From: Polynucleobacter sp. MG-5-Ahmo-C2
Lineage (GTDB): Bacteria > Pseudomonadota > Gammaproteobacteria > Burkholderiales > Burkholderiaceae
Assembly: GCF_018687735.1 (NCBI RefSeq)
Contig: NZ_CP061304.1
Location: 310,001-374,000 of the forward strand
Length of the DNA stretch: 64,000 nucleotides
Reading direction: 5' to 3'
The notes beneath the pieces are model-generated. The model did no database searches. It saw only the letters and a program-made list of their open reading frames with translations, and was not told where the DNA came from. Positions 41,693-45,676 of the stretch are shown here, piece by piece. Every line of letters starts with the position of its first letter. Within the stretch, counting starts at the first letter, position 1. A program made the position numbers and the translations under genes.

Positions 41693-41721
41693 AAAAAGCC
41701 CTTAGCAGTAAGGGCTTTTTT
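41693..41721. terminator. bidirectional terminator between livF and the TauE-like gene
   Basis: A 12-bp stem (41693-41704 with 41709-41720, GCAG loop) centred on GCCCTTA/TAAGGGC with A and T runs on either side. It works for both converging transcripts and overlaps the stop of the TauE-like gene. Confidence 0.88.
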
Positions 41722-42539
41722 CATATGGTGCTCAGACCTTTGATAATCAGGCCAATAGCGACGACAAATACGAGTACAGAGAAAATCTGCTGCAATCTGG
41801 GCCCACTGAGCTTCTTGCCAAACTCCCTACCAATAAGCAGGCCAACTAAGGCTCCCAGAGAGTAAGGTGCAGCAACCAATACATTCATATTGCCTGAGGC
41901 AATTGAGAATAGGGCGCTCCCACTAGCAATTATTGCAAGTACTCCTAGAGAAGTTGCCACGATCGACTGTGCGGATAGATCGGTATAGCGCTTTAGAAAG
42001 GGCACAATCACAAAGCCACCACCAACCCCTAGAAGCCCAGATAAAAAGCCTGCTAAGCCCCCTGAAAACATCAATGCTCTTGCGCAGGGGATATTCCAGT
42101 CTAACTTGCCTTTATCTGGATTGATGAGGCAAGGCGGCGGCTTTCTTTCGACTGACGGCATTCCAAGGATTTCTCTTCCGGCTCGAATAAACAGAGTGAT
42201 TGAGACATAAAACAGAGTGCAGCTAAAGAGAATTAATAACGGTGCATTGGGGATTCGTTGAGCTAGCCAGAGTCCAACGGGTGAAAGTAACAAACCAAAA
42301 ATTGCCATAAAGCCAGATGCTTTGTAGCGCAGAATTTTATTCTTTAAGCCTAAGATAGCTCCGACTGAAGAGGCGATTGCAATCGCCAAGAGTGAAATAG
42401 GTGCTGCCTCGGCCACACTAAAGTGCATCACAAAAATTAACAGGGGGACAGATAGAATTCCGCCACCGGCACCAGTTAAGCCCATGAGGATTCCAACAAG
42501 AATCCCCAAGGAGGGGCTGATTAATATTGAGTAGTCCAT
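41721..42539 (-). CDS. TauE/SafE-family sulfite/anion exporter
   Basis: A 272-residue membrane protein with about eight helices, matching the TauE/SafE (DUF81) family. The two repeats begin GILVGILMGLTGAGGGILSVPLL and GFLSGLLGVGGGFVIVPFLK. Family members export sulfite, sulfoacetate or other organosulfur anions. It is 54 bp after the small haem-type membrane protein of the flavinylation operon on the same strand, so it may be its last gene, but the gap leaves that open. Confidence 0.87.
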   Translation of the reverse strand: MDYSILISPSLGILVGILMGLTGAGGGILSVPLLIFVMHFSVAEAAPISLLAIAIASSVGAILGLKNKILRYKASGFMAIFGLLLSPVGLWLAQRIPNAPLLILFSCTLFYVSITLFIRAGREILGMPSVERKPPPCLINPDKGKLDWNIPCARALMFSGGLAGFLSGLLGVGGGFVIVPFLKRYTDLSAQSIVATSLGVLAIIASGSALFSIASGNMNVLVAAPYSLGALVGLLIGREFGKKLSGPRLQQIFSVLVFVVAIGLIIKGLSTI

Positions 42540-42593: not shown

Positions 42594-43013
42594 TCATGGG
42601 CTCGAATATTGTATTTTTCTTAGTCCGTGTAATAAAAAGATTGCAAAGAATATCAGTCCAACCATCCAATGAGTGCTCACAACACGATCTCGAATTTCTT
42701 CTGGACCGTAATACAGTAGGACTCCTGAAATTAATAAGATCGCTAGAAAGCTCAGTTGGCTAAACCCGCTAATCCATTTCTTTTTGGATTTAATACCTGC
42801 TTTTAAATGAAAGGGTAGTACTGACCCTAGGGCTAAAGTGGCCAAGATTGCTGCAACTCCGTGAGCAGCCAAAATAGAATGAGTTCCCAAGGTTGTTCGT
42901 TGAATATGAAACTCATGGCCAAGCAGATACAAGCTCCCGCTAATGGAGCAAGCAAGCATGCCGCTAAGTACAAATAATCTTTGCCAGCTAGGCATTTTTC
43001 CCAAACGGCTCAT
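42594..43013 (-). CDS. small haem-type membrane protein (DUF4405-like)
   Basis: A four-helix membrane protein of about 139 residues from ATG 43013, which overlaps the apbE stop as ATGA. An in-frame start at 43055 would lie inside apbE. Histidines sit in or next to helices (LLGHEFHIQRTTLGTHSILAAH, STHWMVGLIFFAIFLLHGL), the pattern of membrane b-type cytochromes. It resembles the DUF4405 proteins that occur with FMN-binding proteins and ApbE. Expected role: pass electrons from the quinone pool or cytoplasm to the periplasmic flavoprotein. Haem binding is inferred. Confidence 0.6.
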   Translation of the reverse strand: MSRLGKMPSWQRLFVLSGMLACSISGSLYLLGHEFHIQRTTLGTHSILAAHGVAAILATLALGSVLPFHLKAGIKSKKKWISGFSQLSFLAILLISGVLLYYGPEEIRDRVVSTHWMVGLIFFAIFLLHGLRKIQYSSP

Positions 43014-43831
43014 GCAGCAATCCGAATGGCTTGTGCTGAGAAGTGGCGAAAGCATGGGTGATCATGCCTGCCTGAGAGCGCAAGTACCTTAGTAAGAGCA
43101 TCTGCGTAGACGCATTCATGGGCCAGAATGGAATAAGAGTCCGGGACATTCACATGCGCTTCAGAGGCATCTTGCGCCAAAGGATTAATGATGTGACTGA
43201 GATGCTGATCTCTATTGGCAAAGTACAAGCCACTTGTCGCGATAGCCCCGTTTTGTAATGAGCCGATATCAATTAATTGTCTGGGTTTATTTGGATTCCG
43301 AATTTGGACTGATCGGGGGTTATCGCCAAATACTCGAAGATCGCCTCCCGCATTTACGCAGCCAGATTGGACTCCGCTGACCATTAAGCTTTCCACCGCT
43401 TTATCCACCGCGAAGCCTTTAGCAATTCCGCCAAGGTCTAAGCAGATGGGTTTAGTGGAGGTGATGACCTGTGGCTCTATAAATTGGATGTCTTGAATGC
43501 CACCAAACTCATATTGAGATAGGTCAATATGAATGGGTAATAATCCAGCAGCCACTAGTCGATTGCCAATGCCGCAATTAAATAAACCATTCGATTGCTC
43601 ATAAACATTGATGGCAATTTGGAGGATTTGCGCAGTCCAGGGATGAACTTCCATAGCCACTAGATGCGCCCATCGATTCATTTGAGTGAGCTCACTTAAA
43701 GGGTTGTGAAAGCTCATTAGATTCTGAACCTGTTTTACTGTACTAAATGCACTACCTATCGCCTGTTCATCATCTTGATCAATTGAGATTTCAATAAATG
43801 TTCCCAGAAGAGCTTTGCAGCGCGTCGTCAT
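43010..43831 (-). CDS. apbE: FAD:protein FMN transferase
   Basis: A 273-residue ApbE. Such enzymes use FAD and Mg2+ to attach FMN covalently to a serine or threonine of an exported target. Signature motifs are LDLGGIAKGFAVDKAVE, GCVNAGGDLRVFG, and the later HIINPLA with HECVYADALTKVL, covering FAD and metal binding. There is no obvious signal peptide or lipobox at the N-terminus (TTRCKALLGTFIEISI), so it may act in the cytoplasm or use a non-classical route, unlike many ApbE proteins. It overlaps the FMN-binding gene by 4 bp and the haem-type gene by 4 bp. Confidence 0.9.
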   Translation of the reverse strand: MTTRCKALLGTFIEISIDQDDEQAIGSAFSTVKQVQNLMSFHNPLSELTQMNRWAHLVAMEVHPWTAQILQIAINVYEQSNGLFNCGIGNRLVAAGLLPIHIDLSQYEFGGIQDIQFIEPQVITSTKPICLDLGGIAKGFAVDKAVESLMVSGVQSGCVNAGGDLRVFGDNPRSVQIRNPNKPRQLIDIGSLQNGAIATSGLYFANRDQHLSHIINPLAQDASEAHVNVPDSYSILAHECVYADALTKVLALSGRHDHPCFRHFSAQAIRIAA

Positions 43832-44361
43832 TTTGTTTTAAGTGCTAAATCATGTAAGACTGCCACTCTCTTCACGCCATCAGTAATGTGCTTGCAAGAA
43901 AGTGTGGCGCCACCAATGTTCTGAATATCTTGATTCAGTTTGATGGGGTCCTTTGCAGTCTTGCCAACAAACTGTTTACGCCACTGCGCTTCTTCTACTT
44001 CATAGCCATAAGACTCGACATATTCCAAAATCTCAATACCTAAAATGCTGCCATTGGGTGCAATCCCGACAGCATAGGTAATCATTTCGTGTTTGCCGAC
44101 TACCTCATCGATGACAAGCCAGCCGCCATCGGTAGTCTTCCAGATGCGGTCTCCTTGAAAAGGGTGACGAATGCTAGATGCCGCCCGCATTTTTTCTTGT
44201 AAATCGTCAGTAATGATGATGGGTGCTCTTGTGAGCTGCTTATTAGGAAAGAGAATTTTCTGTGCTTGCTCGGTAGTGGCATATATTTTTGCGTGAGCAA
44301 TGATGGGTGAACTCACCATTGCCAGCCCAACAATCGCAAAGGGATTAGGTTTCCAGTTCAT
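43828..44361 (-). CDS. periplasmic FMN-binding protein, covalently flavinylated
   Basis: A 177-residue FMN_bind-domain protein. An N-terminal hydrophobic segment (PFAIVGLAMVSSPIIAHA) is a signal peptide likely cut after AHA. Near the C-terminus, GGATLSCKH matches the S/T-G-A-T-x-S/T flavinylation site. The acceptor serine is near residue 155, the substrate of the adjacent ApbE. It should be a periplasmic one-electron carrier similar to the RnfG/NqrC domains. Its gene overlaps apbE by 4 bp and lies 15 bp after the DUF6662-like gene. Confidence 0.87.
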   Translation of the reverse strand: MNWKPNPFAIVGLAMVSSPIIAHAKIYATTEQAQKILFPNKQLTRAPIIITDDLQEKMRAASSIRHPFQGDRIWKTTDGGWLVIDEVVGKHEMITYAVGIAPNGSILGIEILEYVESYGYEVEEAQWRKQFVGKTAKDPIKLNQDIQNIGGATLSCKHITDGVKRVAVLHDLALKTK

Positions 44362-44376
44362 TTAATTTCTTGCTCC

Positions 44377-45297
44377 TTAGTTCAGTGGAAAGCCAACTTT
44401 GACAATGAATTCATTGATGGTATGACTATCCCAAACACGAGCGTTCGAACATTCAGCTTCACCGCCACCCATGCAGTTGCCACCTGCTAATTGATAGCGC
44501 CAGGCCCCAGTTACCCACCAGTCCTTAGCGGCATAGTGCATGTTGGGACCAACAAAGGTGGCGCGTTGTACTTGGTTGCGTAGATTTAATTCTGAATAAT
44601 CGTTGTGAAAGCGAGCCTCTACTCCTGCAGACCATTTTGGAGCAAAGCGATAACTAGCGCCCACTAAAAAATCGAGCATAGACTCAGGGACATTGCCATT
44701 CTCAATAAATTTCAAGCGTTCATTTGCCACTACGACGTTGCCAGCAAGCACTAAGCGATCGTCAATGAAATTGGATTGCAATAAAAGCCTTGCTTCAAGC
44801 TCATCTTTATTTCTGCCCCAGGTAGGTTCGAGATAGAAACCAACTCCAACAGGAGATGTCACTGGATTGGTGAGTCGATAAATGGCTTCGAGTGAGCCAC
44901 CTTCAATGCCGCTCTTTCGGTATGGGGTGGCAGGATCATGCGAGGAGGGTACCGCATAGCCACCGGTACAAGTGGGCTCTTCTCCGCATGCCTCAGGGTT
45001 GGTGTAGTTCTGATTGGCATTGGTGTAATAAGAATTGATATAGCCCGCAATTTGCAAATCATTCGTAAGGCCATATTCCAATTCGGATCTAGCAGTCCAT
45101 GCTTCATATGTGCCCGCTGCCTGCTGTTGATTTAACTGCAGGCGTTGTTCAAATTCCAACTTGCCTTTAGGTTGAAGATCAAGCGTATAGATCCAACCAA
45201 ACACTCCTTCGCCTGCATGGGCAAAAGAGAAATGAAGGGCGGTTGCAAGAATAAAACTAAAGGCGATCAGTCTTTTGATGGTCAATTTCATAGTCAT
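44377..45297 (-). CDS. DUF6662-like predicted outer-membrane protein, first gene of Fur-regulated operon
   Basis: A 306-residue exported protein. The signal peptide (LIAFSFILATALHFSFAHA) is followed by a beta-rich mature part starting GEGVFGWIYTLDLQPKGKLE, with repeated amphipathic strands and ending FIVKVGFPLN, suggesting an outer-membrane beta-barrel. The sequence fits my memory of DUF6662, a family of unknown function. Two iron-box-like sites lie 28-73 bp upstream over a good promoter. The gene starts a tightly packed operon with an FMN-binding protein, ApbE and a haem-type protein, so a part in iron reduction or uptake is inferred. Confidence 0.72.
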   Translation of the reverse strand: MTMKLTIKRLIAFSFILATALHFSFAHAGEGVFGWIYTLDLQPKGKLEFEQRLQLNQQQAAGTYEAWTARSELEYGLTNDLQIAGYINSYYTNANQNYTNPEACGEEPTCTGGYAVPSSHDPATPYRKSGIEGGSLEAIYRLTNPVTSPVGVGFYLEPTWGRNKDELEARLLLQSNFIDDRLVLAGNVVVANERLKFIENGNVPESMLDFLVGASYRFAPKWSAGVEARFHNDYSELNLRNQVQRATFVGPNMHYAAKDWWVTGAWRYQLAGGNCMGGGEAECSNARVWDSHTINEFIVKVGFPLN

Positions 45298-45324
45298 ATC
45301 AGGTTGGTGGTTAAAAAAATATAA

Positions 45325-45370
45325 ATAAGAATGGTTCTCAATATAGCATCAAATGAGAATCATTCTCAAA
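45325..45370 (-). promoter_or_regulatory. promoter with two Fur-box-like operators
   Basis: TGAGAATCATTCTCA (45354-45368) is a near-perfect Fur-box core, and AAGAATGGTTCTCA (45327-45340) is a second, weaker copy. On the minus strand a promoter lies between them: -35 TTGAGA (45369-45364), 18-bp spacer, -10 TATATT (45345-45340, preceded by TGC). Fur with iron would cover both elements and shut off the DUF6662-FMN_bind-apbE-haem operon. The + strand gene at 45446 is further away. Confidence 0.8.
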
Positions 45371-45445: not shown

Positions 45446-45676
45446 ATGAATGCAGAAGCCCTCGAAAAACTGGTCTTAATAAAAATGCCCTTTGGTAAAC
45501 ATGCTGGGCGTGCATTGGCAGACCTGCCAGGAAATTACTTGGCTTGGTTTGCGCGCGAGGGATTTCCTAAGGGAGAGCTGGGCCAGTTGCTAGAGTTGAT
45601 GCACACGCTTGACCACAATGGATTACGTGGACTTTTGGCGCCCATCCAAAGAGCGCATGGTCAAGAAGAGCGCTAA
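45446..45676 (+). CDS. DUF3820 family protein
   Basis: A 76-residue protein matching DUF3820, which includes a putative quorum-sensing-regulated virulence factor and is often fused to exonucleases. The conserved pattern is visible: IKMPFGKHAGRALADLPGNY, then LAWFAREGFPKGELGQLLEL. It lies opposite the Fur-regulated operon, with its ATG 76 bp from the Fur sites, and converges with the nuclease gene, leaving only two bases between the stops. Confidence 0.85.
   Translation: MNAEALEKLVLIKMPFGKHAGRALADLPGNYLAWFAREGFPKGELGQLLELMHTLDHNGLRGLLAPIQRAHGQEER

What the first reader, a model, noticed from the sequence alone, without database searches (positions are those of the whole stretch)
42594..45370. 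Fur-box-controlled covalent-flavin electron-transfer operon
Seen: four tightly coupled minus-strand genes (DUF6662-like barrel, FMN_bind protein with GGATLS flavinylation site, ApbE, histidine-rich four-helix membrane protein), with 15-bp or 4-bp junctions. Two Fur-box-like palindromes sit on the promoter -35/-10. Known: ApbE attaches FMN to FMN_bind proteins, and haem-type partners occur with them. Inference: an iron-limitation-induced system that moves electrons to the cell surface to reduce ferric iron, with the DUF6662-like barrel as the outer-membrane part. The link between such a barrel, flavinylation and Fur seems little described, and the putative TauE-like exporter may be its last gene.
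Basis: partly seen in the sequence, partly recalled or inferred. Interest (0 to 1): 0.78.

Follow-up and report, generated by a model that had tools for sequence, protein, structure and literature searches.

The report
Iron-controlled covalent-flavin electron-transfer operon
A freshwater bacterium carries a four-gene set, apparently switched by the iron regulator Fur, that most likely carries electrons through covalently bound flavin to turn ferric iron into the ferrous form that the cell can import.

Summary
Four minus-strand genes (DUF6662-like barrel, FMN_bind protein, ApbE, small membrane cytochrome) are tightly coupled at 42594-45297, behind two Fur boxes on the promoter. In the genus at least one box lies upstream of the barrel in 76 of 77 tested places (80 matches in all), in several genomic contexts, and on both halves of an operon split in one genome. 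Two other high-scoring Fur sites of this genome precede feoAB (ferrous import) and a cytochrome b561; these are conserved too (30 of 30 and 26 of 30 loci). The barrel is predicted as a 12-strand outer-membrane barrel; the last protein as a four-helix cytochrome with four invariant histidines (74 of 74). Best reading: Fur-repressed periplasmic ferric reduction feeding FeoAB. Electron delivery to the cell surface is not supported. TauE is not part of the operon: in 15 of 17 loci opposite-strand genes separate it. Outside the genus the Fur box is mostly missing (3 of 21). Two surprises: ApbE lacks a recognisable secretion signal (25 of 25) although its substrate seems to have one, and 33 of 80 loci carry an extra ~59-residue ORF of no known family. 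New variant of known flavinylation-based electron transfer; no iron response, flavinylation or reductase activity is shown.

The parts
45352..45370 (-). Fur box 1 (TTTGAGAATGATTCTCATT), covers the -35 element
   Evidence: exact 15-bp core, none in shuffles; among the three places with 2 mismatches, the best in the genome; conserved
45324..45342 (-). Fur box 2 (ATTGAGAACCATTCTTATT), end of the -10 and start region; 28 bp from box 1
   Evidence: many relatives show a second box 27-30 bp away (not counted over all)
45340..45369 (-). sigma-70-type promoter TTGAGA-18-TATATT, TG before the -10
   Evidence: 10 of 12; consensus match only
44377..45297 (-). DUF6662-like 12-strand outer-membrane beta-barrel, 306 aa with signal sequence
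43828..44361 (-). FMN_bind protein, 177 aa, N-terminal signal-like sequence ending AHA/K
   Evidence: Pfam PF04205; RnfG/NqrC relatives, sub-threshold; the only FMN_bind found in the genome
43897..43914 (-). flavinylation motif GGATLS, presumed acceptor Thr153
   Evidence: GATLS in 26 of 26; acceptor position inferred from the published [S/T]GA[S/T] motif
43010..43831 (-). ApbE flavin transferase, 273 aa, without recognisable signal peptide
   Evidence: Pfam PF02424 141 bits; the only ApbE found in the genome; N-terminus starts at the domain
42594..43013 (-). four-helix membrane cytochrome, 139 aa; His51, 69, 115, 129 on helices 2 and 4
   Evidence: AlphaFold2 pLDDT 90.7; four His in 74 of 74; two-haem folds high in the structural list

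Best explanation
A Fur-repressed reductive iron-assimilation module. When iron is scarce Fur leaves its two boxes and the four genes are made together with FeoAB and a cytochrome b561. The small four-helix cytochrome carries electrons across the inner membrane, probably from quinol, through two stacked b haems (His69/His129 on the cytoplasmic side, His51/His115 on the periplasmic side). They pass to the exported FMN_bind protein, whose Thr153 carries FMN attached by ApbE. The flavin reduces ferric iron or ferric chelates in the periplasm. The 12-strand barrel is the outer-membrane channel that admits the substrate or an electron shuttle. Fe(II) then enters through FeoB. Shown by computation: gene order, conserved Fur boxes here and at feoAB and b561, domain identities, invariant residues, barrel and helix models. 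Inferred: actual Fur repression, haem binding, topology, haem pairing, electron donor, substrate, direction of flow, role of the barrel.
For: At least one Fur box (15 or more of 18) upstream of the barrel in 37 of 37 and 39 of 40 genus places; the one miss is the rear piece of a broken barrel gene whose front piece keeps its boxes. Controls: endonuclease gene upstream 0 of 22; mononucleotide-shuffled sequence 0.05 per 58. Boxes persist in several genomic contexts and on both halves of the split operon of G273. Same-type boxes before feoA (30 of 30) and cytochrome b561 (26 of 30); FeoA and FeoB confirmed by Pfam. Genomes with FMN_bind carry FeoA in 56 of 75, those without in 3 of 26. Barrel and FMN_bind occur together: of 101 genomes 74 have both, 25 neither, 2 a fragment of one. 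Outside the genus FMN_bind is encoded beside the barrel in 21 of 21 loci. Invariant GATLS (26 of 26) and four His (74 of 74). Ferritin-family gene near the barrel in 3 of 21 loci outside the genus (Pfam). P. asymbioticus raised feoA/feoB about 4-fold in cultures judged iron-limited, and only ferrous uptake was said to be known there (PMC6629928).
Against: No expression or activity data for the operon. PMC6629928 says that P. asymbioticus cannot use the Fe(III) of its medium (citing a strain comparison that I could not read); if that is true by experiment for a strain with the operon, it speaks against this reading. A P. asymbioticus record carries the barrel, but I did not check the strain of that study. 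19 of 75 operon-positive genus genomes gave no FeoA match. Four TonB-plug proteins exist in this genome, so other ferric routes are possible. Outside the genus only 3 of 21 loci score 15 or more for the box; 4 of 30 b561 loci lack it. ApbE without an export signal does not fit the usual periplasmic flavinylation. Two genomes keep a barrel alone at the home site beside a complete second operon. Genus genomes are related, so box counts and the co-occurrence are not independent, and feoA and b561 were picked because they had boxes in this genome.
Confidence: 0.58

Rival explanations
1. Extracellular electron transfer: electrons leave the cell through the barrel to reduce ferric iron or humic matter outside.
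For: Outer-membrane barrel in the operon; extracellular electron transfer is one of the known flavinylation-based systems (PMC8238504 passages).
Against: Twelve strands, like FapF and the COG4313 channel, too narrow for a folded flavoprotein (inference); no CXXCH motif in the four proteins; Fur control suits assimilation more than respiration.
Confidence: 0.1
2. Reduction of ferric siderophores or haem that TonB receptors bring in, with the barrel as exit or accessory channel.
For: Four TonB-plug proteins in the genome; a Fur-regulated PepSY operon for hydroxamate siderophores is known, hiuABC (PMC12424826 passages); a TonB receptor gene within the fetched stretch of two relatives outside the genus (L085, L086; Pfam).
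Against: Nothing found here ties this genome's four receptors to the operon. The other fetched stretches were not scanned with Pfam gene by gene, so absence of receptors there is not shown.
Confidence: 0.15
3. An iron-sparing substitute: a flavin electron carrier replaces an iron-containing periplasmic carrier when iron is short, without reducing iron.
For: Fur boxes; the flavodoxin/ferredoxin precedent is raised in PMC8238504 (passage).
Against: The operon itself encodes a predicted two-haem protein and shares its kind of box with feoAB.
Confidence: 0.08
4. Redox maintenance or oxidative defence in the envelope that happens to be Fur-controlled.
Confidence: 0.09

Closest known systems
Flavinylation-associated gene clusters with DUF4405-type cytochromes (Huang et al. 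2024, PMC10979944; passages read)
   Same: apbE, a flavinylated partner and a membrane protein with four conserved histidines
   Different: Predicted 4 rather than 6 helices, sub-threshold DUF4405 score, plus a DUF6662-like barrel and Fur boxes; ApbE without recognisable signal
Fur-regulated PepSY/DUF2271 system of Caulobacter, CCNA_03155-03159 (PMC11870441; passages read)
   Same: Fur target, predicted periplasmic ferric reduction, mutants impaired under chelation
   Different: PepSY and DUF2271/DUF4198 proteins instead of FMN_bind, four-helix cytochrome and barrel
P19-associated FMN-binding iron assimilation clusters (PMC8238504; passages read)
   Different: P19 and FTR1 transporter, mostly Gram-positive; neither is among the seven genes scanned at this locus
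COG4313 outer-membrane channel (PDB 4rl8) and FapF (5o65)
   Different: 8-13% identity; gene neighbourhoods not compared here
Cytochrome b561 / superoxide oxidase and other four-helix b cytochromes
   Same: Four-helix membrane bundle with conserved His; 24 of 74 members hit PF01292 weakly (E up to 0.1)
   Different: Shorter (139 aa) and linked to FMN_bind and ApbE

Membership tests
Flavinylation system (ApbE plus substrate) | ApbE domain over the curated cut-off | tested here: met
   141.4 bits, cut-off 25.6
Flavinylation system (ApbE plus substrate) | substrate domain with the [S/T]GA[S/T]-type site | tested here: met
   FMN_bind 43.4 bits; GATLS in 26 of 26; the residue before it is G in the window and S, T, A or G in relatives, so the first position of the published motif is loose here
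Flavinylation system (ApbE plus substrate) | ApbE exported or lipidated (usual case) | tested here: not met
   25 of 25 ApbE rows reach at most 1.41 on an N-terminal hydropathy window; FMN_bind rows have median 2.04, but 3 of 26 are also at or below 1.41, two of them with over-long starts. No signal-peptide predictor was available
Flavinylation system (ApbE plus substrate) | covalent FMN on the protein | not testable with these tools
   needs purified protein
DUF4405 cytochromes | Pfam PF14358 over its cut-off | tested here: not met
   window protein 16.3 bits, cut-off 26.7; 32 of 74 members match at E up to 0.1, best 8.3e-6
DUF4405 cytochromes | four conserved membrane histidines | tested here: met
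   74 of 74
DUF4405 cytochromes | six transmembrane helices | tested here: not met
   four long helices in the model
DUF4405 cytochromes | haem b binding | not testable with these tools
   needs purified protein
DUF6662 (PF20367) | score over the gathering cut-off | tested here: met
   50.9 bits, cut-off 27, but only residues 204-274 align
Outer-membrane beta-barrel | closed barrel with signal sequence | tested here: met
Fur regulon | Fur gene and Fur box on the promoter | tested here: met
Fur regulon | derepression by low iron | not testable with these tools
   needs expression data
MtrAB-type porin-cytochrome conduit | multihaem c-type cytochrome and a wide barrel (definition recalled) | tested here: not met
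   no CXXCH in the four proteins; 12-strand barrel. The rest of the genome was not searched for such proteins
PepSY-type ferric reductase | PepSY domain | tested here: not met
   no PepSY hit for the operon proteins at E up to 1

The most novel reading that the evidence does not exclude
A so far undescribed, TonB-independent type of iron uptake: a dedicated 12-strand outer-membrane channel lets ferric chelates into the periplasm, where a covalent-flavin protein fed by a minimal two-haem cytochrome reduces them for FeoAB. Its flavin is attached in the cytoplasm by a signal-less ApbE before or during export, which would be a new order of events for exported flavinylated proteins.
Probability: 0.22. 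Interest if true: 0.82.

Novelty: new variant of a known kind. Interest (0 to 1): 0.6.

Why it matters
Polynucleobacter can be very abundant in fresh water (start of the abstract of PMC7522526, seen in the listing), and P. asymbioticus was described as having only ferrous uptake systems known (PMC6629928). A Fur-controlled ferric reductase would fill that gap and can be tested directly. The work proposes functions for an uncharacterised barrel family and for a four-His cytochrome that reaches no Pfam cut-off in the window, and it raises a concrete question on flavoprotein biogenesis: how an ApbE without a recognisable export signal serves a protein that seems to be exported.

Tried and rejected
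TauE as a fifth gene: rejected as a conserved part. In 17 fetched loci holding both genes, 15 have two opposite-strand genes between CytB and TauE. They were grouped by sequence; Pfam was run on three pairs (L107, L110, L123) and gave metallo-beta-lactamase and ArsR-type domains each time. Only the window (54-bp gap) and G271 have CytB and TauE adjacent. Read-through in this genome is not excluded.

Surface electron conduit of MtrAB type: rejected for lack of a CXXCH protein in the operon and for the narrow barrel.

Weak barrel matches elsewhere in the phylum (up to 75 bits; 17 loci): tblastn found no FMN_bind near any, so they were left out as a different barrel; L239, also a weak row, is a piece of the strong G789 match, and two weak rows without a locus were not looked at. 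Of the 12 strong places (150 bits or more), 11 have FMN_bind and ApbE beside them; the exception is the lone home-site barrel of G307.

Fur sites at G000:674357 and 1269343 (3 mismatches each) were not followed. Literature: DUF6662 is in no held paper. In searches I saw no listed paper on this operon; several lists were cut (20 of 621, 20 of 48, 20 of 27, 12 of 152), and only openly licensed papers are held.

Full report
What is there. The window is part of a 1.82-Mb single-contig genome, by its named relatives a Polynucleobacter. On the minus strand lie a DUF6662-like barrel gene (44377-45297), an FMN_bind gene (43828-44361), apbE (43010-43831) and a short membrane-protein gene (42594-43013). 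The junctions are 15 bp and two 4-bp overlaps. Pfam supports the first three; DUF6662 covers only residues 204-274, and the fourth protein has only sub-threshold hits. One FMN_bind and one ApbE were found in this genome, so they are each other's only candidate partners of these families.

Regulation. A sigma-70-like promoter carries two Fur boxes. The core TGAGAATNATTCTCA is exact and absent from 100 shuffles. In the whole genome only six places come within 3 mismatches of the strict 19-mer, two of them here; the reversed control gave none. One Fur gene was found. I scored the region upstream of the barrel in relatives against an 18-position consensus that allows two bases at one position of each arm. 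Of 58 places tested, 40 score 15 or more: 37 of 37 in the genus and 3 of 21 outside it. Mononucleotide shuffles give 0.05 per 58. The region upstream of a neighbouring endonuclease gene gives 0 of 22, and that upstream of FMN_bind 2 of 58. A further 40 genus places gave 39; the miss is the rear piece of a disrupted barrel gene in G265 whose front piece keeps its boxes. Together that is 76 of 77, out of 80 barrel matches in the genus; the three not tested are G308 (too little upstream sequence), and the truncated or edge matches in G300 and G313. The first-reader refuter 'homologous clusters do not share the box' is therefore not met within the genus, but largely met outside it.

A natural test. 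In G273 the operon is split: the barrel sits alone at the home site with two boxes scoring 15 (L307), and FMN_bind-ApbE-CytB sit elsewhere with their own pair of boxes, 16 and 15, thirty bases apart (L125). Two other genomes (G307, G333) have a lone home-site barrel with a box and a complete second operon elsewhere with boxes.

The regulon. Of the other sites in this genome, one lies before feoA-feoB and one before a cytochrome b561 gene (Pfam). Taking the 30 best loci of each in the genus, the box scores 15 or more in 30 of 30 for feoA and 26 of 30 for b561; shuffles give 0 and 0.05 per 30. These two genes were chosen because of their boxes in this genome, so the real test is the other 29 (29 and 25). 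Among 101 genus genomes, 56 have both FMN_bind and FeoA, 19 only FMN_bind, 3 only FeoA and 23 neither (Fisher p 1.6e-8, not corrected for kinship). All 32 genomes with the b561 orthologue (E below 1e-50; weaker paralogues dropped) have FMN_bind.

Conservation of the set. Barrel and FMN_bind were each found in 75 of 101 genus genomes, 74 in common; the two mismatches, G303 and G313, are short fragments. In 60 fetched loci, 44 have all four genes in order on one strand and 11 have the first three with no cytochrome match at the cut-off used; in four of these (L085, L132, L135, L136) a cytochrome was aligned. The other five are L084 (FMN_bind and ApbE on the other strand from the barrel), L098 (no ApbE match), L102 and L104 (barrel alone) and L125 (no barrel). 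Among 21 loci outside the genus, all encode FMN_bind near the barrel. In the phylum search, 11 of 12 strong barrel places have FMN_bind and ApbE beside them. The set sits in different neighbourhoods, so it behaves as a unit. In three of 21 loci outside the genus a ferritin-family gene lies close by (L083, L092, L099; Pfam), in L083 with a Bfd-like gene.

Surprises. ApbE has no recognisable signal peptide: 25 of 25 aligned proteins stay at or below 1.41 on an N-terminal hydropathy window. FMN_bind proteins have a median of 2.04, with 3 of 26 at or below 1.41, and barrels a median of 2.04, with 3 of 44, so the measure does not separate perfectly. The ORFs run from the first start codon after a stop, so a longer reading with ATG, GTG or TTG is not possible. 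A review says that most ApbEs characterised are exported lipoproteins, with a cytosolic one known for a soluble fumarate reductase (PMC12052999, passages). Here the substrate looks exported; a twin arginine occurs in the first 35 residues of only 1 of 26, a row with an over-long start. Second, 33 of 80 fetched loci (79 of them of the genus) carry a conserved ORF of about 59 residues, between barrel and FMN_bind in 32 and before FMN_bind in L125, where the barrel is absent. Two members were scanned and have no Pfam hit over a cut-off. It is absent from this window.

How it probably works. Low iron removes Fur; the cytochrome takes electrons across the inner membrane, the covalent flavin passes them to ferric iron in the periplasm, FeoAB imports Fe(II), and the barrel admits the ferric chelate or a shuttle. 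In P. asymbioticus feoA and feoB rose about 4-fold in cultures judged iron-limited, and the authors state that only ferrous uptake is known there and that the Fe(III) of the medium cannot be used (PMC6629928, section 12 part 1). The first statement leaves room for this operon; the second, if true by experiment for a strain that has the operon, would speak against it. Whether the operon rose too is not in the text that I could read.

What is already known. Flavinylation tied to iron assimilation, DUF4405-type cytochromes beside apbE, and a Fur-regulated PepSY/DUF2271 operon needed under chelation are published (PMC8238504, PMC10979944, PMC11870441; passages read). The general idea is thus not new. 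The combination with a DUF6662-like barrel, the four-helix cytochrome, the signal-less ApbE and the feoAB-linked Fur boxes in this genus was not seen in the listings of the searches made.

Noticed in passing
L107:8394-8573 (minus strand) and 32 further loci: A conserved ORF of about 59 residues between barrel and FMN_bind (before FMN_bind in L125) in 33 of 80 fetched loci; two members have no Pfam hit over a cut-off; absent in the window.
   Followed up: partly
window 41721-42539: The TauE gene sits next to the operon here and in G271; in 15 of 17 loci a metallo-beta-lactamase-type and an ArsR-type gene on the other strand lie between (Pfam run on three pairs). They look like a sulfide-detoxification set (recalled resemblance).
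   Followed up: partly
G000:C1:674357-674375 (L145): A Fur-like site (3 mismatches) some 70-100 bp before a gene with a Transketolase_N domain (pyruvate dehydrogenase E1-like by recall); conservation not tested.
   Followed up: no
L284 and L308 (G265): The barrel gene is broken into two pieces about 22 kb apart, while FMN_bind and, at the front piece, the Fur boxes remain.
   Followed up: partly
window 45446-45676: A small gene (PF12843) divergent from the operon shares its intergenic region and so its Fur boxes; 21 of 21 places scored have a site at 15 or more upstream of it.
   Followed up: no
L083, L092, L099: A ferritin-family gene lies close to the DUF6662 operon in these relatives outside the genus, in L083 with a Bfd-like gene.
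   Followed up: partly
L102 (G333) and L104 (G307): A lone barrel with a Fur box at the home site although a complete second operon exists, suggesting a separable role for the barrel.
   Followed up: no
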